A stretch of DNA of 20,674 nucleotides from assembly GCA_003133425.1 (NCBI GenBank), contig PKXI01000467.1, forward strand, positions 1 through 20,674, in the 5' to 3' direction. Origin of the DNA: Acidobacteriaceae bacterium (GTDB taxonomy: Bacteria > Acidobacteriota > Terriglobia > Terriglobales > Acidobacteriaceae). Within the stretch, counting starts at the first letter, position 1. The number at the start of each line of letters is the position of its first letter. Both the position numbers and the translations under genes were made by a program. Below, in pieces: positions 2,914 through 15,066 of this stretch. The notes below the pieces were generated by a model, which was not told the DNA's origin, did no database searches, and was given only the letters and a program-made list of their open reading frames with translations.

Positions 2914-3843
2914 ATGCAAACAGGAAATGGCGAGTGGACCTATCGCGTCGTTGAGGGTTGGGGACATTTGCCGGCTGGAACTTCGTTCGGTGGCACTCAC
3001 GGCGGAATTGCCACCGACAAAGCCGGCAACGTGTACGTGAGTACACAGAGCGCGACCGGAGTCCTCGTATACAGTCCGGATGGCACGCTCCTCAGGACGA
3101 TTGCCAACGAGTATCCCGAAGTCCACTCGATCGTCTACGCAGAGGAGAACGGCAACGAGTACCTGTACACAACAGTGCAAAAAGGCACTCCAAAAGAGAA
3201 CTGGCTCTTTGTCAAAATGAAGACCGACGGAACCGTGGTGCAGAAGATCACTGCTCCACCCCAGGCCGGCTTCAAAGCTCCGAATGAATGGCGGCTGACT
3301 TCCGCGGTGCCCGCCCCGGACGGCTCCATCTTTATCGCCAATGGCTACGGCGACTCGCGGCTTTTCAGGTTCGACAAGAACGGCGAGTACAAAGCGAGTT
3401 ACGCCGGCAAGGGTCACACGGAAGGCCTCTTCGATTGCAACCATGGACTCGCCGTCGATATGCGCTACGGCCAGCCGCTGCTCCTGGTGTGCGACCGCGA
3501 AAATCGCCGCCTCTGTCATTTCGACTTCGACGGAAAATTCGTTCGCACAGTCACCCAGCATCTGCGCCGACCATGCCAAATAAGTTTTCACGGAGACTAC
3601 GCCGTCGTCTCCGAGTTGGAAGGCCGAGTCACGATCCTCGACAAGGACAATGTCCCCGTCGCCTTCCTCGGTGACAATCCGCAGCGCGCACAATGGGCCA
3701 ACTACAAACTCCAGCCCGGTGAAATCGCCCCGTTCTTTTTCAGCGCCGCTCATGGATGCCACATTGACGAGTACCTCAACATTTACGTCTCTGACTGGAA
3801 TCAGACGGGCCGGGTCACCAAGCTAGTCCTCACAACGGCATAA
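2914..3843 (+). CDS. NHL-like six-bladed beta-propeller protein
   Basis: This 309-residue protein has no signal peptide or membrane segment, so it is predicted cytoplasmic. Repeated blade units with 'D..GN.YV', 'SPDGTLL', 'APDGSIFIANG', 'FDKNGEY', 'LLVCDREN.R', 'FDFDGKFVRTV' and 'LNIYVSDWN' spacing mark it as an NHL/SMP-30-like propeller. Histidines recur at the same blade-entry position (H29, H71, H177, H280, mostly followed by Gly). That recalls the zinc-binding histidines of the peptidyl-alpha-hydroxyglycine lyase propeller, but enzyme activity is not established. A GAAGGG ribosome binding site precedes the ATG by about 8 bases. Its close coupling to the upstream methyltransferase suggests a shared small-molecule pathway. 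It could instead be a non-catalytic scaffold or ligand-binding propeller. Confidence 0.75.
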   Translation: MQTGNGEWTYRVVEGWGHLPAGTSFGGTHGGIATDKAGNVYVSTQSATGVLVYSPDGTLLRTIANEYPEVHSIVYAEENGNEYLYTTVQKGTPKENWLFVKMKTDGTVVQKITAPPQAGFKAPNEWRLTSAVPAPDGSIFIANGYGDSRLFRFDKNGEYKASYAGKGHTEGLFDCNHGLAVDMRYGQPLLLVCDRENRRLCHFDFDGKFVRTVTQHLRRPCQISFHGDYAVVSELEGRVTILDKDNVPVAFLGDNPQRAQWANYKLQPGEIAPFFFSAAHGCHIDEYLNIYVSDWNQTGRVTKLVLTTA

Positions 3844-3894
3844 GGCCACTTCGAAAAGCTGAATTCCCCCGGCGGTCAAGAATCGCATCCGCCA

Positions 3895-4845
3895 GTGCAA
3901 TTCCCCGCCCCCGTGCCTCATACTTTTCGTGTGCGCGAAATCCTCCGGTCCATCGCCATAGCAATCGCATTCAATATGCTGAGTGCCGCGTGCGGCCCCG
4001 CTCCGGCGCCCAGCTGGCAAACTGCGGTTGATCGTGCCGCGCGCGTGGCTCCCGAAGCAAGAATCCTGGTAGTCGATCTCAGCACCGGTCGCCTGCTGGC
4101 CTCGCACCGCCTCAGCGAAGCGGCTCGCACTCTGGCCGCGCCCGGCTCAACGCTCAAGCCACTGGTCCTGTATGGCCTCGTTGCAGCAGATCGCTGGAAT
4201 CCCGACCGCCGCATCGCCTGCGACCGCAAACTCGTGGTGGCCGTACACCACATGTCCTGCACGCATCCCCCGGCCCCGCCATTCAATGCACGCGAAGCGC
4301 TCGCGTGGTCCTGCAACACTTACTTTGCACAGGTTGCGCGCACGCTTGAACCTGGAGAACTCGGCCGTCTCCTGCGTTCCACCGGATTGCTGAGCTTTAC
4401 AGGATTGGCAGGCAAATCGGAATCGGCCGAGGTCCCAGCCGAGTTTCGCGAACCATTGAATCCAGAGGCCGCGCAACTTGCACTGCTCGGCGTTGAAGGC
4501 ATTCGCATAACTCCGCTCGAGTTAGCCGCCGCCTATCGCTGGCTCGCTTTGGAACTGGCCGCGCATCCTGACTCGCATGCAGCTCAAGTGGTCCGCGCCG
4601 GTATCGAAGACTCCGCCAGCTTCGGCATGGCGCGCCAAGCCGGCCTCGGAGGCGTCCCCATAGCAGGCAAAACCGGAACAGCCGAAGGCGCCGCTTCAAA
4701 CCAATCGCACGGCTGGTTTGCGGGAGTAGCTCCAGCGGATAAACCCCAGGTTGTTGTGGTCGTCTATCTCCCCGCTGGCCGAGGCGCAGACGCCGCTCAC
4801 GTAGCCGCTGAGTTGCTATCGCATTCGTCCTTGGTGCACCAATGA
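3895..4845 (+). CDS. Transpeptidase-only penicillin-binding protein, probably exported
   Basis: This 316-residue protein carries the three active-site motifs of a serine DD-transpeptidase in order: SxxK at 85-88 (S85-T-L-K88, in APGSTLKP), SxN at 139-141 (S139-C-N141) and KTG at 259-261. It should cross-link or trim peptidoglycan peptides in the periplasm and bind beta-lactams. It is far shorter than ordinary class A or B PBPs; no glycosyltransferase or dimerisation domain is present. The N-terminus has a hydrophobic stretch (about 17-32) ending in LSAAC-G. C33 may be a lipoprotein cysteine, but the lipobox is imperfect. The GTG start at 3895 has no clear ribosome binding site, and in-frame GTG codons at 3913 and 3931 are alternatives. 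The stop overlaps the next gene in ATGA, which indicates translational coupling to the SpoIID protein. Confidence 0.85.
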   Translation: MQFPAPVPHTFRVREILRSIAIAIAFNMLSAACGPAPAPSWQTAVDRAARVAPEARILVVDLSTGRLLASHRLSEAARTLAAPGSTLKPLVLYGLVAADRWNPDRRIACDRKLVVAVHHMSCTHPPAPPFNAREALAWSCNTYFAQVARTLEPGELGRLLRSTGLLSFTGLAGKSESAEVPAEFREPLNPEAAQLALLGVEGIRITPLELAAAYRWLALELAAHPDSHAAQVVRAGIEDSASFGMARQAGLGGVPIAGKTGTAEGAASNQSHGWFAGVAPADKPQVVVVVYLPAGRGADAAHVAAELLSHSSLVHQ

Positions 4846-6626
4846 TCCCGCATCGGACCTTACTCAGCGCGCTGGCCGCAGCCATCCTGGCCATCGCCAA
4901 TGTCGAACACGCGCCGCAGCCTGCCGCACTCGCTGCCTCCACTCCACAAACTGTGCGCTTAACTCTCCGCGTGGGCATGTGGACGTTATGGCACGATCGC
5001 GAAGTTATATTGAAGCCCACCGGCCCCAATCGCAAAATCACGTTTCGCACCTGCGGCCAATGCGCCGCCCTCTCGCTGTCTCAAGCTGTCACCGTCCGCG
5101 CCAGCGGCGACGCAGTCCTGCTTGCCGGCTCTGGCAGCAAAGGAAATGCGACCCACCTCTGGCTTGCCGGCGCAGTTACTCTGGCGGCCCACGGCGAAAC
5201 GGTGACTTTGCAGAATCCCATCGAGATCACCGCGCGCGCGGGCATGCTGGTCATCGCCGTCACGCTGCCCGTCGAGAGCTATGTCGAACGTATCGTCTCC
5301 AGCGAAAGCGGTCCCTCCGACACCCAGCAATCGCTGCAAGCTCTAGCCATCGTAGTCCGCACCTTCGCGTTGCACGAGCCTCACGGCCACACAGACTACG
5401 ATCTCTGCGACTCCACTCACTGCCAGCTCTTGCATTGGGGTGGCAATCCCGGCAGGCAGCCCGCCGCCCACAACGCCACACTGGCCACCGCCGGCGAGAC
5501 GCTGTGGTTCCACGCCACGCGCGCGTTGGCATATTTCAACAAAGACTGCGGCGGACGAACCGCCTCGCCCACCGAGATATGGCCGCGCGCGCATGCGGCC
5601 CCCTATCTGCCCTCGCAACCGGACCGCTATTGCACCAACAGCAACGGCAGAGAGTGGGCCTCCGATCTAACCTGCACCGAGCTGTCCGCAGCGCTTGCCT
5701 CAGCCGGACTTGCAGCCCCCGGATGGCAACACCTCACCGTCGAGCGCAGAGGCGAGTCGGGCCGCGCCGTCACGCTACGCCTCGACGCAACTCAAATCTC
5801 CGCCGAATCCTTCCAACTCGCTGTCGGTCAGGCCCTGGGATGGAGCAAGATTCCCAGCACCTGGTTTGAAGTGAGCCAGCAGGGCGATCACTTCCTCTTC
5901 CACGGCCGCGGATGGGGCCATGGCGTTGGCCTTTGCCAGAAGGGCGCTGCAACAATGGCATCGCATGGCCGGTCAGCCCAACAGATCCTGCAACAGTATT
6001 TCCCCGGCGCCCAACCCGCCGACGAAGCCACTGGACGCGCCTGGCAGAGTTTCAAAGGCGATGGCTTCACGCTCGAATCTCTCGACGCCGCGGATGCCGC
6101 CTACCTGCCGCAGTTGTCTCGCGTGTATGCTGAAGCATCGCAACGATCCGGCCTCAACGCACACTCGCCCTTCACCGTGCGCTCCTTCGCCACCACGGCC
6201 GCCTTTCGCGACGCCACGCTGGCGCCCGGCTGGGTAGCAGCCTTCACTGAAGGTGATTGGATTGCAACTCAGCCGTTAGGCACCCTGGCCGCGCGCCGCC
6301 TGCTCGACGCAACCATGCGTCACGAATTCCTGCACGCGCTCGTTGAACATGAGTCCGGTCCCGCCACGCCACTCTGGCTCCGCGAGGGCCTCGTCGAAAC
6401 ATGGAGCGAGCCTGACACCCGAACAACCGCAGCTCCCGCAATCAACCTCGCCGCAATCGACGCTGCACTCGCGCACTCATCCAGCGAGGCAGAATCCGAA
6501 ACGGCTCATCGCGCCGCCGCATGGTATGCCGCGCGCCTGCTCGATCACTACGGACGCGCGAAGGTTCTCGAATGGCTCCGCTCAGGCGTCCCCGACGGAG
6601 TCCTCACCACTCTCACTCAGCGGTAA
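4842..6626 (+). CDS. SpoIID/LytB-domain protein with C-terminal HEXXH metallopeptidase-like domain
   Basis: This 594-residue secreted protein has an N-terminal signal peptide (about 1-32). The SpoIID/LytB domain covers about 35-390. Its hallmarks are LPVESYV at 142-148 with E155 just after, DCGGRT at 235-240, and a C-terminal block starting GRGWGHGVGLCQKGA at 355-369. SpoIID proteins are lytic transglycosylases that cut glycan strands lacking stem peptides; LytB proteins stimulate amidases. Residues about 430-594 form a second domain with HEFLH at 494-498 and, 16 residues on, WLREGLVE (512-519, E515 the likely third ligand). This pattern matches gluzincin/peptidase_MA-like zinc peptidases. 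It starts inside the stop of the PBP gene (ATGA), so the two should be made together. Its 3' end overlaps the convergent membrane-protein gene by 45 bases. Confidence 0.87.
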   Translation: MIPHRTLLSALAAAILAIANVEHAPQPAALAASTPQTVRLTLRVGMWTLWHDREVILKPTGPNRKITFRTCGQCAALSLSQAVTVRASGDAVLLAGSGSKGNATHLWLAGAVTLAAHGETVTLQNPIEITARAGMLVIAVTLPVESYVERIVSSESGPSDTQQSLQALAIVVRTFALHEPHGHTDYDLCDSTHCQLLHWGGNPGRQPAAHNATLATAGETLWFHATRALAYFNKDCGGRTASPTEIWPRAHAAPYLPSQPDRYCTNSNGREWASDLTCTELSAALASAGLAAPGWQHLTVERRGESGRAVTLRLDATQISAESFQLAVGQALGWSKIPSTWFEVSQQGDHFLFHGRGWGHGVGLCQKGAATMASHGRSAQQILQQYFPGAQPADEATGRAWQSFKGDGFTLESLDAADAAYLPQLSRVYAEASQRSGLNAHSPFTVRSFATTAAFRDATLAPGWVAAFTEGDWIATQPLGTLAARRLLDATMRHEFLHALVEHESGPATPLWLREGLVETWSEPDTRTTAAPAINLAAIDAALAHSSSEAESETAHRAAAWYAARLLDHYGRAKVLEWLRSGVPDGVLTTLTQR

Positions 6627-7385
6627 CTCTGCCACAGCACCGCCATTCGCAGGCCGCCCCAGCATCACCGCCGCCCACCCCAGCAACAAAACCCAACTGC
6701 AGATGGCGAGCACATAGCTTCCGACCAACTTGAGCGCCACCGCCCACACCTGATTCGAAACCGTTCCATGCGGAACACCATTAAAGAAATGCCCCGGCAA
6801 CACCACGCCCAAAAGTGCCGCCAGCACCACCGCCGGCCACCACCGCCAGTTGAACAGCAGCCGAATGATCTTCCGAAACGGCACCCGCCAGCCCCATTGC
6901 GCCGACGCCACCGCGTACGGAACGATCTTGCCCGGGACAATAATCCAGCGCAGCAGCCATTCGGCCTGCGTGAACCACTTTTGCAGATGTTCATAGGTAA
7001 AGACCGTTGCTCGCCCGCCCGCCGAAGCCCGCGAGTTCAGATAGCCCGCCCACTCCCCAATCCTGTCGTCACACCAGTCCAGTGCCGCCCAGCACGCCCA
7101 GAACAACGCTACCCACACCAGCAGCGTACATGCACCCAACACCAGCTTCACGCGCCTGCCATCATCGTCCGCCAGCGCGCGCATGGTCCCAGCTTCCAAC
7201 TCGAGAAACGAAATCCCCAGCAGCACGGGCACAAGCAAGGTCAGCAAAACTTGCCACACGTGCTTATCCGGCAACCGTGTCCACGCCAGTACCAGCAGTA
7301 TCAATAGCAGCGTCAAGCCAAACTGCAACGCAACCCAAACGGAGCTCAATCGAATGCGGCGGAATAAATCAACAAAGTAACTCAC
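6582..7385 (-). CDS. Multi-pass inner-membrane protein of unknown function
   Basis: I do not recognise this 267-residue protein. It has strongly hydrophobic segments at about 15-36, 44-63, 79-101, 184-200 and 213-242, and a Trp-rich, less hydrophobic stretch (about 140-182), so five or six membrane spans are likely. No catalytic motif is visible. The tail after 245 is polar and acidic. The start is GTG, overlapping the alpha-2-macroglobulin stop in GTGA, with GGAGGT about 7 bases upstream, which makes the start secure. Tight coupling suggests it anchors, exports or senses the state of the macroglobulin. Its last 45 bases overlap the end of the convergent SpoIID gene. Confidence 0.8.
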   Translation of the reverse strand: MSYFVDLFRRIRLSSVWVALQFGLTLLLILLVLAWTRLPDKHVWQVLLTLLVPVLLGISFLELEAGTMRALADDDGRRVKLVLGACTLLVWVALFWACWAALDWCDDRIGEWAGYLNSRASAGGRATVFTYEHLQKWFTQAEWLLRWIIVPGKIVPYAVASAQWGWRVPFRKIIRLLFNWRWWPAVVLAALLGVVLPGHFFNGVPHGTVSNQVWAVALKLVGSYVLAICSWVLLLGWAAVMLGRPANGGAVAELPLSESGEDSVGDA

Positions 7386-10300
7386 GGCTGCACCTCCAGC
7401 GTTGCGGGATCGGTAGTGGTCTGCACATTCGCCTGATACATGGGCCCTGCCTGCGCCGGACTGATCACAAACTTGCCTTCGTTCACCACCTTCAGCAGGT
7501 ACACATACTCGCGCCGCCCGCTGAACTCGGTATTGAAGAAAGCCGCCCGATCATCGTGGAACTCCTTGCGCGTAAACCAGTCGGCCCACCAGTCAGGCTT
7601 GTTATTCAGTTTGTAGAGCCCGGTATCCGCAAGAAACTCCGTGCCCGCCGGAATCGGATCCTCGGCCAGCAGATACTTCCAGGCCGTTCCGCTCAGCGCC
7701 AGCCTCACGGCAACAATATCGCCCATATGCGCCGCACCCTTTAGCGGAACCAGGTCGTACGTAATCGGATCCGTCGGCTTGTCCTGCCGTTTCTGCAACA
7801 GGTAATAATCGCGCGTAATGTTCAACGCCAGCTTGCCCTGCTGGAAGAGCCGCTTGTCTGCCGAGTACCACCCACTCTCCGCCGACCAGTAGGTAATCCC
7901 ATTGCCGCTCTTGCGAACGGTGACCTGACCGCCGCTTCCCGCCTGCGCCGCCGGAACCTGTATCTTCCACGGCAATGCAAACCCATCACCCGGCCCAAAG
8001 TGCCGCTTACCCACACTCGCGCCATTCACCAGCACTTCCACATCCGACGCGTTCGCCAGCTCACCACTCAGTTGCACGTAGTCCGTCAGCCCCTGGATCA
8101 CCATCGCCGTCTGCTTGGTCGAATACCAGTAACTGCCCTCGCGATGTCCGGCAAGCCACACCGCAGCCTTCGGCAGCAGCCCACTCGCGCGATCCTGCCT
8201 GATAAGCAGCTTCAGCGCAAACGCCGTAGTCTCACTCGAAGTGTCGTCCCAATACTCGAGCAGACCATCGTAATTGCCTTCCCAATGCGCATCGATATCG
8301 CTCACCCTGGCCTTCTTTTCCAGCAGCGTGGCGGCCTCCCGCGCGCGTCCGTCTCCCGCCGCATCAAGCGCAAGTCCCACCAGCGCCAGCCCCTCGTCGC
8401 TCAACTTGTCGCGGCTATCCCATGCCTTGTCGAGCCCATCCTTCGGCGCACCGCCCGTCGTAGCAAGCGCAAACACCACATAAGCCCGCAAATCCGGAAT
8501 CATGTCAGGATGCGCAGCCAACGTCGCCTTCAACCAGGCGCGCCCCTTGTTCATCCGGTCATCATCCACTGTCCGGCCCGCATCTTTCGCCTGTCCCAAT
8601 CCGCTCACAACGTATGCAGTCATAAACACGCGGCTCGGATCATCCGGCCACCAACCCCACCCTCCATCGTCGTGCTGGAAGCTGTACAGCCGCTCGATCC
8701 CCGCGTTCACCATATCGTTCAACGTCGCGCGATCGATCGGCGACTTCAGATGCAGCTTGTCCACCGCCTGCGCCACAATCAGGTCCGGCATAAAGCTTGA
8801 CATGGTCTGCTCAGTGCATCCCCACGGATAGCTGGTCAGGTAATCGAGCGCCGTAAACACCGTCCCCGCCACCGATGGCGCCACTGTAATCGTCAGCTCG
8901 CGTGTTCCCGCATCCGATCCATCCGGATAGCTGTACGACCACTGGTTCTGTCCCGCGCCCGAGAACACCACTCCTGCCCCCGCCGCCTTCTGCTTCACGC
9001 CATACGCCAGCACCGGCAGTGTCATCTCCAGCGCATCCGATTCTTCGTTCGTCAGCGCCTTCGCAGTCAGCACCACGTTTCCTGTCGCCTTTGCTTTTAC
9101 GCGCCAGTCTACGTAGCTCTCGCCCTTCGCCGGAATGTTCACCTTCTGCGTCTGTCCGCTCACAACGTCCACGCCCGTAACGTCCAGCGCAAACGTTACA
9201 TCCTTCGCCGTCGCCAGGTAGTTGTGCGCAATCACGCGCAGCACCGTCTCGTCGCCCTGCCGGAAGAACCTTGGTGCAGCCAGCCGCACAATCAGATTCT
9301 TGCGAACCAGCACTCGCGTCACCACGCCGCCCGCCTTGCCGTCATCCGTCATTGCGCGAATAGTCGTCCGCCACGTCGTCAACGCATCCGGAAAATTGAA
9401 CTCGACGCGCGCATGCCCATCTGCTCCCGTCCGCACATTCGGATTCCAGTACGCCGTATCTGGAAACGCTTTGCGCACCTTCGGCACCACCAGGTCTGAA
9501 CCCGGTTTCACCTGCGCCATCCGCGGGTGGAACATCCCCGCATTCATCTCCGCCAGCAGCGGACTCTTCGTTCCCGCCTGCCCCGAGAAGAAAAAGTCGA
9601 ACGAAGTTTGCGGTTGCAGATATGCGTATCGTTTCGGATAGAAGAAGCTCACAATGTCGCCGCTCGTATCCGGCCGCACCGAGTACAGCGCCTCATCCAC
9701 CTCGCCAAAGCTAAGGTCCGCCTCCACAGGCTTGCCCTGCGAGTCGACAGCAAATACATCAAAGCTGCCCTTCTCTCCGGGCAGGTACTGGCTCTTGCTC
9801 GCCGTCGCCGTCACCGTCAGCGTTCGCTCCACCAGCGGAACCTTCAGGCTCTTCTGCGCCGTCATCAACTGGTTTTCGTGAACAATCACCGCATTGACAA
9901 TGAGGTTCGGTTGCGACTGCTGCGTAATCGGCACGTCGAACGCAAAGCTCTCCCCCGTCGCATGCATCAGTCTCCGTGACTGCACGCTTTCGCCCTCCGC
10001 CGTCACCACCGCCCACGACTCCTTCAACCCCGTCACCAGAAGCAGGTGCGCCGTATCGCCCACCTTGTAGCTCTTTTTATCGGCCACAATCTGCGCCTGA
10101 GCATTCGGCTGGTACCACTCGCCCGCACCATTCCAGATCCATACCCAAGTGCGTCCCACCACTGTCCGGTTCTCCGGAGTCTGCGCGCTCGCCGTCACCT
10201 GGAAATCGCCGCTCCCTGCCGCGCCCATCGCCAGTTCCACCAGCGCAGTCCCATCCGCGCCCGTGGTAGCATCGCTGCCAGCCACTGGAGCCTCGGTCCG

Positions 10301-12070
10301 CTCGCGCGTCACAGAATCCCACTTTTCCAGCGCTGCTGCCACATGCACCTGCGCCTGCACCGGCTTGCCATCGTAGTCCTGCGCCGTCACCTTCACCCGC
10401 ACCGGTTGCCCGCTCTGGAACACATAACTCGTCGGCTCCACGCTCACGCGAAACGGTCCATACGTAGCCAGCACCGTGGTGTGTCCACTTACCTCGCGAT
10501 TGGCCGCATCCGTCACCCGCGCCTCAATGCGGTAATCCTGATCGTTGTGCTTGCCGTCTACTGCCGTGGGCAGCGTTACCGTCAGCCTTCCATTCGCATC
10601 CAGCACGCCCTCGTGTTCCTGCTGCTCGGTCTCATCCCAGGCAACATCGGAATTATCTGATTCGCCCGAGTCGCCTTCATCGCCTTCCGCATCACCTCCT
10701 GAATCTTCCTGGTCCTCATCCCACCAGTAATGCGCCGACGTATGCACCACGTATTTCACCTTCGCCCCTGCAACAGGCTCGCCAAAAAAGTACTTTGCCT
10801 CGATGTTTGCCTGAATGGGATTTCCCTGAAGAAGATGTGCCACTGCCACCTTCACCGTCACCTGGTATTCAGGCTTCTTGTACTCCTCCACATAAAAGCT
10901 GCCCCCGCCCGCTACTCCGGCATCGTTGAGGCTCACGTTGTAGTACCCCAGCGCCGCATCACTTGCCAGATCCAGGTCCGCCGTCAGCGTCCCGTGCGCC
11001 GAGAGAGCAATCTCCTTCGTGAATACCTTCTTGCCATTGCTGTCGTTCACCTCAAGTGTTGGCGTCAGGCCCTGCGGCAATTGCAGCGTATCGTCTTTCT
11101 TCAGCCGCACGATCGCCTTGATGTGCACCGTATGTCCCGGCCTGTAGACTGGCCGGTCAGTGTAGATGTACGCCCGCCCCTGCCGCTCGTTCTGCTGCCC
11201 GAAGTTATAGCTCCATGGAGTCACCAGCGCCGCATCCGCCCCGTGCCGTGCCAGAATCCACACGTTCTCCGGCTCCGGCCCCTGCGCCGTTCCACGCGCG
11301 CCCATCGCCAGCGAAGCCATCCCGTCGCCGTTGGTCGTGCTCGACGACTGCATCTTGCCATCGGACCACAACGCCACATCAGCCTTCTCGATAGGCACAC
11401 CGGTCTTGCGATCGGCCACGTAGAGATTGGCCTGCCCGTTCAGTATCCGCTCCACTACCGCAATGCTCGTTACCAGCGCCACGGTGTAGGCCTTGTAAGT
11501 TCCGTCCGTTGCTTCGATTAGATACACGCCCGCAGAGAGTCCGTCGATCGGCAACTGCTGCGTTTCACTCACCAGCGCAGGCGGCGTCTCCAGCTTCCAT
11601 CGCGCCACCAGTTGGCTTGCATTCAAAATCGGCACCTGCGCAAACTGAGCCGCGCCCACCACCCGGCTCTTCTTGCCCAGCTTGCCCTGCTGCTCGCGGA
11701 AGTTGTCGCGCGCATCATCAGTAAACTGTCCCCGGAAGAAGTGCCGCACCAGCCACCACAAGTGCGCCTTGAAGTCGTGCAACCGCTCCAACAAAGTGCG
11801 CTGGTCAATCTGCTCCGTCGGCGACTGGCTCTGCACGCCAAAGCTGTGCAGGTCCTTCAGGCCGGCAAAAAACTTCTGCGCGTCGTTCACCCGGTAAACG
11901 CGAAACTCCAACTCCGGCACATTCCGCGCCAAGAGCTGTATCTTCACGCTCTCGCCCGGCGCAAACGTTCGCGACGTCGACAGCGAAAACGAACGCGGCG
12001 CGTCCGTTGCGTGAGCGGCTGCGCAAAGCAGCAAGATCGAAACAGCAAGCAGCGATTTACCCTGACTCAT
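7382..12070 (-). CDS. Alpha-2-macroglobulin family protease trap with thioester
   Basis: This 1562-residue protein should be periplasmic. It begins with a signal peptide (about 1-21, ending AHA), and the Cys in LLLC is not in a valid lipobox, so signal peptidase I cleavage is more likely. Recognisable parts are the MG/A2M_N region with DRPVYRPG at 305-312, the A2M domain entry RKAFPD at 866-871, and the thioester motif C1085-T-E-Q1088 in a GCTEQ context inside an alpha/alpha-toroid thioester domain. A proteinase that cuts the bait region would trigger collapse and covalent capture. Residues 451-488 form an acidic insert (18 of 38 Asp/Glu, no Lys/Arg). The start at 12070 is preferred over a longer frame to 12139 because it overlaps the upstream stop in ATGA, has GAGGA upstream and begins the signal peptide directly. 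Length is similar to E. coli YfhM and YfaS. The downstream membrane protein and upstream DUF1175 gene are coupled to it. Confidence 0.93.
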   Translation of the reverse strand: MSQGKSLLAVSILLLCAAAHATDAPRSFSLSTSRTFAPGESVKIQLLARNVPELEFRVYRVNDAQKFFAGLKDLHSFGVQSQSPTEQIDQRTLLERLHDFKAHLWWLVRHFFRGQFTDDARDNFREQQGKLGKKSRVVGAAQFAQVPILNASQLVARWKLETPPALVSETQQLPIDGLSAGVYLIEATDGTYKAYTVALVTSIAVVERILNGQANLYVADRKTGVPIEKADVALWSDGKMQSSSTTNGDGMASLAMGARGTAQGPEPENVWILARHGADAALVTPWSYNFGQQNERQGRAYIYTDRPVYRPGHTVHIKAIVRLKKDDTLQLPQGLTPTLEVNDSNGKKVFTKEIALSAHGTLTADLDLASDAALGYYNVSLNDAGVAGGGSFYVEEYKKPEYQVTVKVAVAHLLQGNPIQANIEAKYFFGEPVAGAKVKYVVHTSAHYWWDEDQEDSGGDAEGDEGDSGESDNSDVAWDETEQQEHEGVLDANGRLTVTLPTAVDGKHNDQDYRIEARVTDAANREVSGHTTVLATYGPFRVSVEPTSYVFQSGQPVRVKVTAQDYDGKPVQAQVHVAAALEKWDSVTRERTEAPVAGSDATTGADGTALVELAMGAAGSGDFQVTASAQTPENRTVVGRTWVWIWNGAGEWYQPNAQAQIVADKKSYKVGDTAHLLLVTGLKESWAVVTAEGESVQSRRLMHATGESFAFDVPITQQSQPNLIVNAVIVHENQLMTAQKSLKVPLVERTLTVTATASKSQYLPGEKGSFDVFAVDSQGKPVEADLSFGEVDEALYSVRPDTSGDIVSFFYPKRYAYLQPQTSFDFFFSGQAGTKSPLLAEMNAGMFHPRMAQVKPGSDLVVPKVRKAFPDTAYWNPNVRTGADGHARVEFNFPDALTTWRTTIRAMTDDGKAGGVVTRVLVRKNLIVRLAAPRFFRQGDETVLRVIAHNYLATAKDVTFALDVTGVDVVSGQTQKVNIPAKGESYVDWRVKAKATGNVVLTAKALTNEESDALEMTLPVLAYGVKQKAAGAGVVFSGAGQNQWSYSYPDGSDAGTRELTITVAPSVAGTVFTALDYLTSYPWGCTEQTMSSFMPDLIVAQAVDKLHLKSPIDRATLNDMVNAGIERLYSFQHDDGGWGWWPDDPSRVFMTAYVVSGLGQAKDAGRTVDDDRMNKGRAWLKATLAAHPDMIPDLRAYVVFALATTGGAPKDGLDKAWDSRDKLSDEGLALVGLALDAAGDGRAREAATLLEKKARVSDIDAHWEGNYDGLLEYWDDTSSETTAFALKLLIRQDRASGLLPKAAVWLAGHREGSYWYSTKQTAMVIQGLTDYVQLSGELANASDVEVLVNGASVGKRHFGPGDGFALPWKIQVPAAQAGSGGQVTVRKSGNGITYWSAESGWYSADKRLFQQGKLALNITRDYYLLQKRQDKPTDPITYDLVPLKGAAHMGDIVAVRLALSGTAWKYLLAEDPIPAGTEFLADTGLYKLNNKPDWWADWFTRKEFHDDRAAFFNTEFSGRREYVYLLKVVNEGKFVISPAQAGPMYQANVQTTTDPATLEVQP

Positions 12071-12978
12071 GGAGTTCCTCGCAGAATATTCCAGCGATAG
12101 ACGCCGAGAAAGTTTGGATTGCCCGGAAGCGGCCGCCATTGCGGCTGAGGATGGTCAAGCAGTTCAGCCAGCGTCACGCGCCGCAACTCGCCCGGGAGCC
12201 CGTGGTCGGGGTCCCCACGGACAGGTCTTCGTCCGTGGGGTGAATGATCTGTGCCGGTGTCGTAGACGACCGCAGCCTCAGGCCCCGCCCGGGCCACAAT
12301 CATCGAGTGCCACGGCGAAGACTGCCCGAACTGGCGATAAAAAAGTAGATCTCCCGGCAGGGCCTGGCGCACATCCCTGCTCACGAAAAACGCATTGCGT
12401 TCCACCAGCGTCTTCGCGTCGGCAAACTGCGCAAAGGCGCCGTCGTCCACATCCCGCGCCTCAAATGCTCCCGGCCGCACCCTGAACAGCGCAGTGCCGA
12501 GCGGCGAATGCGGATAGCTCCACGCGCGAACCTCTCCCGGCGGAGCAGAAACCTCCATCCCGCTCGTCGTAAACCAGTTTTCGTCGTGGCGCTTCAGAGC
12601 CTCGCGGTAGGCGTAGCGCAGCAGGCTTGCGCAGTCCGTAATCTCTGCCGGCACCTCAGCCTTGGGCCGAACAGCCTGGTACTCCGCGATCAACGTGAAC
12701 CAGCGCCGGAACGCTGCCTGGTCTGCCGGATCGCTCAGCCGCAAAAAATCCGGCGTCCCATCCCCGAACCGGTCCGTCCATGCCACCGATGCACCGCTGC
12801 CAGCAGAATTCGCGGCCTCGTGCGCAACGCGCCCCGCCCGCAGCAACCGCCACCCGCCAAACCCAATCAGCAGCGCAATCATAATCAGCGCAGCCACGGA
12901 ACCGAACACAACCCCGGATCTCCAGCGACGAGCCATCGCTGTCTGGGTAGAAACGAGAGGTCTGGCGTGAGCATTCAC
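12067..12978 (-). CDS. DUF1175 family protein, NlpC/P60-like
   Basis: This 303-residue protein is anchored or exported by a single hydrophobic helix (about 23-46). The rest matches DUF1175, the family of E. coli YfaT, whose gene lies beside the macroglobulin gene yfaS. It contains DCASLLRYAYREAL (Cys at about 116), PGDLLFYRQFG and, closely after, WHSMIV. A Cys near a conserved helix, the 'PGDLLF' strand and a His before a hydrophobic strand are the layout of NlpC/P60-type cysteine peptidases, so a peptidoglycan-peptide hydrolase role is plausible; this is inference. The start is uncertain: GTG at 12978 has no evident ribosome binding site, and ATG at 12936 (residue 15) would keep the membrane helix. 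The stop overlaps the macroglobulin start (ATGA). Residues about 247-256 are encoded by a perfect palindrome, which looks like a repeat inserted in frame. Confidence 0.83.
   Translation of the reverse strand: MNAHARPLVSTQTAMARRWRSGVVFGSVAALIMIALLIGFGGWRLLRAGRVAHEAANSAGSGASVAWTDRFGDGTPDFLRLSDPADQAAFRRWFTLIAEYQAVRPKAEVPAEITDCASLLRYAYREALKRHDENWFTTSGMEVSAPPGEVRAWSYPHSPLGTALFRVRPGAFEARDVDDGAFAQFADAKTLVERNAFFVSRDVRQALPGDLLFYRQFGQSSPWHSMIVARAGPEAAVVYDTGTDHSPHGRRPVRGDPDHGLPGELRRVTLAELLDHPQPQWRPLPGNPNFLGVYRWNILRGTP
12213..12240. repeat. Perfect palindrome inside the DUF1175 coding region
   Basis: CCCCACGGAC at 12213-12222 pairs perfectly with GTCCGTGGGG at 12231-12240 around an 8-base loop. It lies in frame within the DUF1175 gene and encodes a Gly/Arg/Pro/His-rich segment (about residues 247-256). 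It resembles dispersed intergenic palindromes of Acidobacteria rather than ordinary coding sequence. Confidence 0.65.
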
Positions 12979-13117
12979 GGGAATGAGAGAAAGTGAGACG
13001 CACTCATCCTAGCGCGAAAAGGCCCCTGTGCAGAAAAGATAAAGTCGACAACCAATCAGCGATGGCGGAATCCAACGACTCGCTATTGAAGCCTGGGATT
13101 CCACATCAGTCCCGTGC

Positions 13118-13153
13118 CCCATCCTTGCGACTTTCTTCTGTCGCAAGGGTGGG
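13118..13153. repeat. Intergenic palindromic repeat (14-base arms)
   Basis: CCCATCCTTGCGAC at 13118-13131 pairs with GTCGCAAGGGTGGG at 13140-13153 around an 8-base loop, with one G-T wobble. It lies in the gap between the gamma-glutamyltransferase stop (13201) and the DUF1175 start (12978). I recognise this 'CCATCCTTGCGAC...GTCGCAAGG' form as a dispersed repeat in Acidobacteria. It may also lower read-through from the upstream gene. A second, weaker inverted repeat (GCTGAAT 13164-13170, ATTCAGC 13193-13199) directly follows the stop codon. The rest of the gap shows no gene or clear promoter. Confidence 0.65.
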
Positions 13154-13200
13154 ATACCACAACGCTGAATCTGGTTGCTCTCTCCGACCCAAATTCAGCT

Positions 13201-15066
13201 TCAATAAGCCAGCGCCACCCCATCCGCCCGCATCTCGCTCGCCGCGGAATAGAACCGATCCGCCCCGCTCATCCCCCCGCTCATGCGGTGCTCGATGCAC
13301 TCGTACCGTCCGAACCCGCCGTCAGAAGCTTCCAGCGGCCAGCCAAGCTCCGCAAGCGCGCGCCGTGACGCCTCCGGCACCCCTGCCTCCAGTCGCAGCA
13401 CGCCCATCGGTCCCAACCCAGCCGTATCTTCCCCCATCGTCTGCGAAGACCCTTCATGATGCCACCGCGGACTGTCTCCCGCCGCCTGAATCTCCAATCC
13501 GTAATCCACGCGGTTGATAATGATCTGCGACTGCCCCTGCGGCTGCATATCACCGCCCATAACGCCAAACGACATCCACGGCTTCCCATCCCGCGTTGCA
13601 AATCCGGGAATGATCGTCTGAAACGGCCGCTTGCCCGGTGCGTACATATTCGGATGTCCGTCCTGCAGCGAAAACAGCTCTCCGCGATCCTGGAACATGA
13701 ACCCGAGCCCATCTGCCACCAGCCCCGATCCCAGCCCGCGAAAGTTCGACTGGATCATCGAGATCATCATGCCGTCCGAATCCGCTACCGTGAAGTACGT
13801 AGTGTCGCCGTGACTCGGCGCCTGCCCCGGATGCACCGGCGTCAAAATCCGATCCGGCCGAATCAGCTTCGCCCTCTCCGCCGCATACTCCTTCGAGTTC
13901 AGCCACTCAATCGGAATCTTCGCAAAGTGTGGATCGGCATAGTAACGCCCGCGATCTTCATACGCCAGCCGCTTGGCCTCCACCTGTGCATGAATCGACG
14001 CCGCAGACTGAAAGCCCATCTCCCGCAAATCGAAGTTCTCCAGAATATTCAGAATCTGCAGCGTCGCCAGCCCCTGCGTATTCGCGGCCATCCCATAAAC
14101 ATCCACGCCGCGATACTTGGTCACCAGTGGCTCATTCCACTCCGCATGCTGCTCGCGCAGATCGCTCACTTGCAACCACCCGCCGATCCGCTTGAAATAC
14201 TCCTCAATCGTCTTCGCGATTGGCCCATCATAGTATGCGTCGCGTCCGCCCTCGGCGATCATGCGATAAGTGCGCGCCAGGTCAGGATTGCGAAACACAT
14301 CGCCCTCGCTCGGTGCGCTGCCTCCCGGCGCAAAGGTGTGCACCGCGTTTGCTGTCTCCTCCACGCCCGACCCCGGCTTCACAAAGGCCGCCAGGTTGCG
14401 CTTGATGTAGAAGCCGATAATCTGCGGCACCGGCACGCCCGACTCGCAAAGATGAATAGCGGGCTCCAGCACCTCCTGCCACTTCAGCCGCCCATAGCGC
14501 TGGTGCAGCGTCCACCACGCATCCAGCGCACCGGGCGTCGAAATAGACACCGCGCCGAACTTCGGAATCACGCCATTCACTGCCCGCTGCCGCACCGTCT
14601 CCAGGCTCAGCGACTTCGGCGAACGTCCCGATCCCGCCAGCCCCACCACCTTGCTCAGCTTGGGATCCCAAATCATCGCGTAGCAATCCCCGCCCAGCCC
14701 GCAACTTGTCGGCTCCAGAAATCCCAGGCAGGCATTCGCAGCAACCGCCGCATCCGCGGCTGAGCCCCCGCGCTTCAACATCTCGATCGCCGTCAGCGTA
14801 GCCAGCGGATGCGCCGTCCCCGCCGCACCTGACCGCCCCATCGCCGCCGAACGGCTCGCAAAGCTCGCTCCCGATGGCCGGTCTCCCGCGTGAACGTCAG
14901 GCCGCAGAAATCGCTCCGCGCCAGCAGGCTGAAACTTGGGCAGAGCCGCTTCCGAATCGGCTTTCCGCATCGCAGCCCCTTCCTGTCCTGAAGCCTCGGC
15001 GTGAAGACCGCTAAGTGTGCCTGCCGCGGCCAGCGGAAGTGCAGCAACAAATGATCGGCGACGCAT
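13201..15066 (-). CDS. ggt: Gamma-glutamyltransferase (glutathione hydrolase family), Tat-exported
   Basis: This 621-residue protein is an N-terminal nucleophile hydrolase made as one chain that cuts itself into large and small subunits. The nucleophile is T422 in GDTTYF (residues 420-424 plus the following Phe), giving a 421-residue large part (before signal removal) and a 200-residue small part, as in classical GGTs. Other family signatures are GGSAADAAVA and LGGD in the large subunit, and GSG, PGKRP and GG.MQPQGQ in the small subunit. It hydrolyses or transfers the gamma-glutamyl bond of glutathione-like peptides in the periplasm; some relatives act on other acyl-amides, so the substrate is open. 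The N-terminus MRRRSFVAALPLAAAG has a twin-Arg export signal. The ATG start has AAAGGAGT upstream. It is the gene upstream of the DUF1175 operon but separated by about 220 bases, so co-transcription is uncertain. Confidence 0.93.
   Translation of the reverse strand: MRRRSFVAALPLAAAGTLSGLHAEASGQEGAAMRKADSEAALPKFQPAGAERFLRPDVHAGDRPSGASFASRSAAMGRSGAAGTAHPLATLTAIEMLKRGGSAADAAVAANACLGFLEPTSCGLGGDCYAMIWDPKLSKVVGLAGSGRSPKSLSLETVRQRAVNGVIPKFGAVSISTPGALDAWWTLHQRYGRLKWQEVLEPAIHLCESGVPVPQIIGFYIKRNLAAFVKPGSGVEETANAVHTFAPGGSAPSEGDVFRNPDLARTYRMIAEGGRDAYYDGPIAKTIEEYFKRIGGWLQVSDLREQHAEWNEPLVTKYRGVDVYGMAANTQGLATLQILNILENFDLREMGFQSAASIHAQVEAKRLAYEDRGRYYADPHFAKIPIEWLNSKEYAAERAKLIRPDRILTPVHPGQAPSHGDTTYFTVADSDGMMISMIQSNFRGLGSGLVADGLGFMFQDRGELFSLQDGHPNMYAPGKRPFQTIIPGFATRDGKPWMSFGVMGGDMQPQGQSQIIINRVDYGLEIQAAGDSPRWHHEGSSQTMGEDTAGLGPMGVLRLEAGVPEASRRALAELGWPLEASDGGFGRYECIEHRMSGGMSGADRFYSAASEMRADGVALAY

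What the first reader, a model, noticed from the sequence alone, without database searches (positions are those of the whole stretch)
3895..12978. Two facing envelope operons: PBP-SpoIID/peptidase against DUF1175-macroglobulin-membrane protein
Five adjacent genes joined by 4-base overlaps all encode exported or membrane products acting on peptidoglycan or proteases. Proteobacterial macroglobulins pair with PBP1C (yfhM-pbpC) or with DUF1175 (yfaS-yfaT). Here a thioester macroglobulin pairs with DUF1175 and an unknown membrane protein, and a transpeptidase-only PBP coupled to a SpoIID-peptidase fusion lies convergent to it. This could be a distinct wall-repair and protease-capture module in Acidobacteria.
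Basis: partly seen in the sequence, partly recalled or inferred. Interest (0 to 1): 0.72.

Follow-up and report, generated by a model that had tools for sequence, protein, structure and literature searches.

The report
Bacterial protease trap with wall-repair enzymes
In this soil bacterium, genes for a large protease-trapping protein resembling our alpha-2-macroglobulin and complement sit beside genes for cell-wall cutting and joining enzymes and a built-in zinc peptidase; in most relatives examined that carry the set it stays together despite rearrangement, so it is probably one envelope-defence machine.

Summary
Window 3895-12978 holds DUF1175 > thioester macroglobulin (A2M) > membrane protein, facing a transpeptidase-only PBP > SpoIID-HExxH pair. 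Of 396 Acidobacteriota genomes, 54 carry DUF1175 over cut-off. Of these 54 loci, 51 have an A2M beside it (all 51 keep CxEQ) and 45 hold transpeptidase (TP), SpoIID and HExxH domains nearby (44 with the A2M). Layouts differ: convergent, co-directional, fused, or domain order swapped. SpoIID-HExxH copies have TP in 29 of 29 cases from genomes with DUF1175, 0 of 14 from genomes without. It is not unique to Acidobacteria: the PBP plus SpoIID-HExxH pair is a split counterpart of E. coli YfaQ (MagE by gene order), so this is a thioester-bearing variant of the yfa/mag operon. The HExxH domain, in no Pfam family at cut-off, is gluzincin-like and sits directly behind the A2M in 5 of 5 Deinococcota plasmids. 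Most likely this is a periplasmic guard: DUF1175 holds peptidoglycan, A2M traps intruders, enzymes mend the wall, and the peptidase acts on A2M or its catch. Function is inferred, not tested.

The parts
3895..4845 (+). Transpeptidase-only PBP, 316 aa, hydrophobic N-terminus with lipobox-like LSAAC (read by eye); motifs PGSTLK, SCN, KTGT
   Evidence: Pfam PF00905 E 9e-27; SxxK, SCN and KTGT kept in 20 of 20 split PBPs aligned
4842..6626 (+). SpoIID lytic-transglycosylase-like domain fused to a C-terminal HExxH peptidase, 594 aa
   Evidence: TIGR02669 E 7e-40; Foldseek SpoIID 4rwr E 8e-7; SpoIID Glu in 19 of 20 (one gap), HExxH 20 of 20
6039..6623 (+). Gluzincin-like zinc peptidase domain (residues 400-594): HEFLH at 494-498, then WLREG (E515); in no Pfam family at cut-off
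6582..6626 (.). Tail-to-tail 45-base overlap of the two operons
   Evidence: 11 of 12 related loci overlap, 8 of 12 by exactly 45 bases
6582..7385 (-). Polytopic membrane protein, 267 aa, about 5-6 TM helices, no named family
   Evidence: no Pfam/NCBIfam; hydropathy; AF2 pLDDT 78, pTM 0.70; no PDB match at E <= 0.001; profile found in 7 of 396 genomes, all 7 behind DUF1175-A2M, two more at DUF1175 loci
7382..12070 (-). Alpha-2-macroglobulin, 1562 aa, signal peptide (by eye), bait region, thioester CTEQ (about 8807-8818)
   Evidence: Pfam MG2, A2M, TED, A2M_BRD, bMG10; CxEQ in 40 of 40 plus 11 of 11 A2Ms next to DUF1175 in the phylum sample
12067..12978 (-). DUF1175 (MagC/YfaT family, NlpC/P60-like), N-terminal hydrophobic helix (by eye); Cys116 and His224 kept
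   Evidence: PF06672 E 8e-63; PDB 7bk8 MagC E 5e-18; Cys 41 of 41 and His 39 of 39 rows with a letter, of 43

Best explanation
The five genes form one periplasmic envelope-guard module, a thioester-bearing, partly split variant of the yfaT-yfaS-yfaQ / magC-magD-magE system. Shown by sequence: the parts, their motifs, their homology to the yfa/mag parts and their conserved linkage. Inferred: DUF1175, anchored in the inner membrane, holds peptidoglycan and docks the A2M; the membrane protein tethers the complex in place of single-pass MagB; the A2M traps an intruding protease or effector by bait cleavage and its thioester; the SpoIID domain trims damaged or denuded glycan strands and the lipoprotein transpeptidase re-crosslinks the wall; the gluzincin-like domain is the A2M's dedicated peptidase, processing it or clearing it after capture.
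For: Linkage: DUF1175 over cut-off in 54 of 396 Acidobacteriota genomes; all 54 neighbourhoods examined (40, 13, one): A2M adjacent in 51, thioester in 51 of 51, TP + SpoIID + HExxH in the same stretch in 45, 44 of them with the A2M. Layout varies: convergent and split, convergent and fused, co-directional and fused, or HExxH-before-SpoIID with TP in front, so it is not merely frozen synteny. Co-occurrence: TP with SpoIID-HExxH in 29 of 29 copies from DUF1175 genomes against 0 of 14 from genomes without (Fisher p 1.3e-11, not corrected for kinship); at least 3 changes on the SpoIID-HExxH tree. Homology to YfaQ: hhalign against the fused proteins, 298 collinear columns over TP and SpoIID, prob 97.9, E 5.7e-13 for one comparison; Pfam SpoIID above cut-off in YfaQ; HEYLH in 21 of 21 YfaQ relatives aligned. 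The window A2M matches YfaS (210 bits) better than YfhM (90 bits). HExxH protein directly behind the A2M in 5 of 5 Deinococcota plasmids, same domain by hhalign. Published: MagC structure 7bk8; DUF1175 said to bind peptidoglycan (PMC10318531, passage); mag operon protects against some wall-targeting T6SS effectors (PMC12663445, passages); yfaQ deletion widens cells and resembles wall-remodelling mutants (PMC12282094, passages); magE deletion disturbs MagD processing (PMC5764988, sections 7 and 10).
Against: No function was tested. SpoIID-HExxH without TP and without DUF1175 exists in 13 genomes plus one truncated contig, so that enzyme also works outside the module. Of these 14 genomes 11 have no A2M match and 3 (G232, G194, G336) have a more distant A2M of about 2,000 aa without DUF1175. 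In 3 of 54 loci the TP-SpoIID part lies elsewhere in the genome (L055, L068, L073); L118 kept TP but its genome has no A2M match; L140 and L142 have DUF1175 and part of HExxH-SpoIID but no TP or A2M beside them, although the genome of L142 holds A2M pieces on other contigs. In 2 of 5 Deinococcota plasmids DUF1175 is not next to the A2M. DUF1175 is described as inactive, and MagE was reported cytoplasmic and not stably bound to the Mag complex. YfaQ matches the split families less well than the fused ones (PBP prob 30, SpoIID prob 90) and its C-terminus matches the HExxH domain only weakly (prob 42 against Acidobacteriota, 2 against Deinococcota). The promoter scan of 3700-13300 found none and fewer terminator-like sites than shuffles, so co-expression is unknown.
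Confidence: 0.7

Rival explanations
1. Two unrelated envelope operons kept side by side by common descent; the A2M set and the PBP-SpoIID set do separate jobs.
For: G174, G382 and G057 keep both sets but apart; SpoIID-HExxH exists without DUF1175 in 13 genomes and one truncated contig; L014 has the membrane protein without A2M.
Against: The neighbourhood survives inversion, fusion, fission and domain swapping; TP follows DUF1175 across genomes, 29 of 29 against 0 of 14; counterparts of the parts are adjacent in E. coli and, for HExxH, in Deinococcota.
Confidence: 0.13
2. A pure wall-remodelling machine: the A2M is mainly a scaffold or stress sensor and its protease-trap chemistry is incidental, as type II A2Ms do without the thioester.
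For: The yfaQ phenotype is about cell width and resembles wall mutants; intact YfaS and a Citrobacter A2M lack CxEQ; the published mag protection is against wall-cutting effectors.
Against: CxEQ is kept in 51 of 51 acidobacterial and 5 of 5 Deinococcota A2Ms of this type, and the bait-region domain matches Pfam; MagD trapped a protease in vitro even without a thioester (PMC5764988).
Confidence: 0.3
3. The HExxH domain acts on peptidoglycan-bound or lipoprotein substrates and has nothing to do with the A2M.
For: It stays fused to SpoIID in genomes without DUF1175, 11 of 14 of which have no A2M match.
Against: It is a separate protein directly behind the A2M in 5 of 5 Deinococcota plasmids.
Confidence: 0.3

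Closest known systems
mag operon of Pseudomonas aeruginosa / yfaA-yfaT-yfaS-yfaQ-yfaP of E. coli (type II A2M operon)
   Same: DUF1175 before the A2M; a TP + SpoIID + HExxH protein (YfaQ; MagE by gene order, inferred) behind it
   Different: A2M keeps the thioester; no DUF2138 or DUF2135 among the window ORFs scanned; a polytopic membrane protein is added; TP and SpoIID-HExxH are two genes in a facing operon; TP keeps SCN and KTGT where the YfaQ family has SCG and KTW
yfhM-pbpC (type I A2M with PBP1C)
   Same: thioester A2M linked to a transpeptidase
   Different: the PBP here has no glycosyltransferase hit; the A2M is closer to YfaS than to YfhM by BLAST; DUF1175 and SpoIID are present
Deinococcota A2M-HExxH operon (Deinococcus and Meiothermus plasmids)
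   Same: thioester A2M followed by the same HExxH domain; DUF1175 in front in 3 of 5
   Different: HExxH is a stand-alone ~200 aa protein; no SpoIID annotated in the stretches read; DUF1175 detached in 2 of 5; in D. psychrotolerans a transglycosylase-domain gene lies about 6 kb on
Gluzincins (M1 aminopeptidases, M9 collagenases)
   Same: HExxH and downstream Glu; fold of residues 390-594
   Different: about 10-15% identity; no Pfam family at cut-off (nearest DUF1570, E 0.0012, below its cut-off, for a Deinococcus member)

Membership tests
mag/yfa type II A2M operon | DUF1175 gene next to an A2M gene | tested here: met
   window yes; A2M adjacent in 51 of 54 loci
mag/yfa type II A2M operon | YfaQ-type TP + SpoIID (+ HExxH) protein in the cluster | tested here: met
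   split in two genes in the window
mag/yfa type II A2M operon | A2M without CxEQ thioester (defines type II) | tested here: not met
   CTEQ in the window; CxEQ 51 of 51 in relatives
mag/yfa type II A2M operon | DUF2138 (MagB/YfaA) and DUF2135 (MagF/YfaP) genes in the cluster | tested here: not met
   none among the 10 window ORFs scanned with Pfam; elsewhere in the genome not testable, genome not held
mag/yfa type II A2M operon | single co-directional operon | tested here: not met
   window is two facing operons; co-directional in other lineages
yfhM-pbpC type I A2M pair | thioester A2M | tested here: met
yfhM-pbpC type I A2M pair | partner is a bifunctional PBP1C (glycosyltransferase + transpeptidase) | tested here: not met
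   316 aa PBP with Pfam Transpeptidase only
DUF1175 / MagC | PF06672 profile and NlpC/P60 Cys-His | tested here: met
D,D-transpeptidase (PBP) | SxxK, SxN, KTG motifs | tested here: met
   20 of 20; activity not tested
SpoIID lytic transglycosylase | SpoIID profile, catalytic Glu, fold | tested here: met
   activity not tested
Gluzincin zinc peptidase | HExxH + downstream Glu and fold | tested here: met
   Pfam membership below cut-off; zinc and activity not tested
mag-type envelope protection | protection against wall-cutting effectors | not testable with these tools
   needs bench work

The most novel reading that the evidence does not exclude
A complement-like circuit in bacteria: a thioester macroglobulin with its own dedicated activating zinc peptidase. 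When the wall is breached, the gluzincin-like domain cuts the A2M bait region, the exposed thioester bonds covalently to nearby intruder or damaged wall, and the attached SpoIID and transpeptidase enzymes repair the marked spot. The A2M-gluzincin pair would be the old core (Deinococcota, Acidobacteriota), with the thioester later lost in the proteobacterial type II form.
Probability: 0.15. Interest if true: 0.85.

Novelty: new variant of a known kind. Interest (0 to 1): 0.62.

Why it matters
Bacterial macroglobulins are described in two separate settings: thioester type I beside PBP1C, and thioester-less type II in the mag/yfa operon (PMC5764988, passages). This locus is a thioester macroglobulin in the mag/yfa setting with wall enzymes attached, which ties the two settings together and suggests that macroglobulin action and peptidoglycan repair are one job. 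It also names a concrete, untested partner: a gluzincin-like peptidase that accompanies these macroglobulins in two phyla by profile and in a third by motif and position. That would offer a simple explanation for the report that MagD is not properly processed without MagE.

Tried and rejected
Chance neighbourhood: rejected. Known anti-phage system: no PADLOC hit at E 0.01 for the six window proteins given. Known fold for the membrane protein: Foldseek against PDB gave nothing at E 0.001, best 0.68; this does not show a new fold. Thioester reactivity (complement-type His or not): the PDB alignments skip that stretch, inconclusive. Pseudomonadota-wide survey of DUF1175: not possible, no genome handle. 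Literature: the listings (20 of 34 papers shown; 20 of 61; 1 of 1; 12 of 139; 11 of 11; none found) show nothing that describes this acidobacterial module or an A2M-peptidase pair; I saw titles and starts of abstracts there. Robert-Genthon 2013, Budd 2004 and the MagC paper of 2021 are not held, so their content is unseen. 'HExxH', 'metallo' and 'zinc' do not occur in the main texts of PMC12282094 and PMC5764988. That MagE is the DUF2300/YfaQ protein is inferred from gene order. Meanings of motifs (SxxK, CxEQ, lipobox, HExxH) and the preference of SpoIID for denuded strands are recalled.

Limits of the TP test: TP was sought about 9 kb around each SpoIID-HExxH gene, less where contigs end; the swapped-order group is left out; the match list was cut, best E-values first; one of the 14 TP-less copies (L120) ends before HExxH, and one of the 29 (L119) is read in two frames; a second, TP-less copy in G272 (L110), which has DUF1175, was not counted. 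Genome completeness was not told. A first comparison of the membrane proteins included one wrong ORF and was redone.
Full report
What is there. The window comes from an Acidobacteriaceae-type genome: its A2M is 88% identical to that of an Acidobacteriaceae MAG, L001. The PBP has Pfam Transpeptidase only; the second gene is SpoIID plus a C-terminal region with HEFLH; the A2M has a CTEQ thioester; the membrane protein matches no Pfam or NCBIfam family.

Is the neighbourhood conserved? I started from the least known part. A profile of the membrane protein found 15 genome loci: 14 have DUF1175-A2M directly upstream, and of the 13 of these with DNA beyond the membrane protein, 12 have the facing SpoIID-PBP pair (L004 lacks it there, L008 ends early, L014 has no A2M). 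The tail-to-tail overlap is kept in 11 of those 12. In 396 Acidobacteriota genomes the membrane protein profile hit 7, and all 7 lie right behind DUF1175-A2M; two more copies at DUF1175 loci turned up.

Across the phylum. PF06672 is over cut-off in 54 of 396 genomes, an even draw. I examined all 54 neighbourhoods (fetched; read). The A2M is adjacent in 51, and all 51 have CxEQ. Transpeptidase, SpoIID and HExxH domains are all found in the fetched stretch, up to 13 kb downstream and sometimes with other ORFs between, in 45; 44 of these have the A2M. Of the other nine, two have TP only (L083, L138), two have part of HExxH-SpoIID but no TP or A2M beside it (L140, L142), three have the genes elsewhere in the genome (L055, L068, L073; found in L104, L111, L117), and two contigs end inside the A2M (L062, L076). 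L118, counted in the 45, keeps DUF1175, a membrane-protein-like ORF and TP-SpoIID-HExxH, but its genome has no A2M match. The layouts differ: convergent with split genes (the window's kind); convergent with TP-SpoIID-HExxH as one protein; co-directional DUF1175 > A2M > membrane protein > TP-SpoIID-HExxH; and DUF1175 > A2M > TP > HExxH-SpoIID with the last two domains swapped. The swapped group's TP is confirmed by profile (hhalign prob 97.2, E 4.5e-11) and by motifs such as GSLAK, SCN and KTGT. The membrane proteins of the co-directional group are related to the window's (hhalign prob 86, E 5e-6 over 236 columns; reversed control nothing).

Coming and going together. A phylum-wide SpoIID-HExxH profile hit 358 of 396 genomes; most matches in the cut list cover SpoIID alone. 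Among copies that run through HExxH, TP is fused or adjacent in 29 of 29 from genomes with DUF1175 and in 0 of 14 from genomes without (one of the 14 is a truncated contig; a second, TP-less copy in G272 is left out). Whole-genome searches found no A2M in 11 of the 14; the other 3 (G232, G194, G336) have a more distant A2M, 26-30% identical, in frames of about 2,000 aa. On a tree of 43 copies the TP label needs at least 3 changes. Fisher p is 1.3e-11, not corrected for kinship. So the SpoIID-HExxH enzyme can live alone, but TP comes with DUF1175 and its A2M.

The link to yfa/mag. In E. coli the order is yfaA, yfaT (DUF1175), yfaS (A2M), yfaQ (DUF2300), yfaP. YfaQ carries SpoIID above Pfam's cut-off. 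Its family, aligned to 16 fused acidobacterial proteins, runs collinear over TP and SpoIID for 298 columns (prob 97.9, E 5.7e-13 for a single comparison); against the split families alone the match is weaker (PBP prob 30, E 6e-4; SpoIID prob 90, E 2e-6). The YfaQ family keeps SxxK, has SCG and KTW in place of SCN and KTG, and keeps the SpoIID Glu and HEYLH, 21 of 21 aligned. A 2025 paper had already described YfaQ as transpeptidase-like plus SpoIID-like, with wider cells on deletion (PMC12282094, passages). The differences are the thioester, which defines type I and is absent from intact YfaS and a Citrobacter relative, and the membrane protein; no DUF2138 or DUF2135 is among the window ORFs scanned.

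How it likely works. Shown: the parts, their intact active-site motifs, their linkage and the homologies. From the literature seen: DUF1175 is classed with NlpC/P60-like folds, said to bind peptidoglycan but be inactive (PMC10318531, passage), while the family here keeps Cys in 41 of 41 and His in 39 of 39 rows with a letter. MagD traps a protease, and its processing is disturbed without MagE, which those authors put down to signal-peptide removal or a chaperone role (PMC5764988, sections 7 and 10). The mag operon protects against some wall-cutting T6SS effectors (PMC12663445, passages). Inference: a membrane-tethered complex in which DUF1175 holds the wall, A2M captures what comes in, SpoIID and PBP mend the wall, and the gluzincin acts on the A2M or its catch. 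Against it: SpoIID-HExxH exists without DUF1175, and MagE was reported cytoplasmic.

Verdict. The least expected points are the thioester A2M inside a mag/yfa-type set and the conserved A2M-gluzincin pairing; both are directly testable.

Noticed in passing
L124 8427-10518; L127 8157-10267: In two Deinococcus plasmids DUF1175 has left the A2M and lies beside an anhydro-N-acetylmuramic acid kinase gene, a peptidoglycan-recycling enzyme.
   Followed up: no
L014 9676-10506: A stand-alone copy of the membrane protein family without A2M, beside a glycosyltransferase-like ORF (neighbour named by eye).
   Followed up: partly
L140, L142: Two loci with DUF1175 directly followed by part of an HExxH-SpoIID gene, without A2M or TP beside them; the genome of L142 has A2M pieces on other contigs, that of L140 none.
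   Followed up: partly
L118 10435-15216: A decaying locus: DUF1175 and a membrane-protein-like ORF remain, the A2M is gone, and a large ORF that looks like a TonB-dependent receptor (by eye) lies before TP-SpoIID-HExxH.
   Followed up: partly
G232:C292, G194:C19, G336:C68: Three genomes with TP-less SpoIID-HExxH and no DUF1175 carry a different, longer A2M-like frame of about 2,000 aa.
   Followed up: no
L095 5799-10403; L122 3988-8502: yfaS is annotated as a pseudogene in E. coli MG1655 and with an internal stop in ER1709, and is intact in strain MEI4B-1023.
   Followed up: no
window 13201-15066: The gamma-glutamyltransferase gene upstream of DUF1175 has a counterpart in that place only in L001 and L002 among the 15 loci.
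   Followed up: partly
P0031, P0117: Relatives of the membrane protein of 456 and 433 aa look like head-to-tail duplications (by eye).
   Followed up: no
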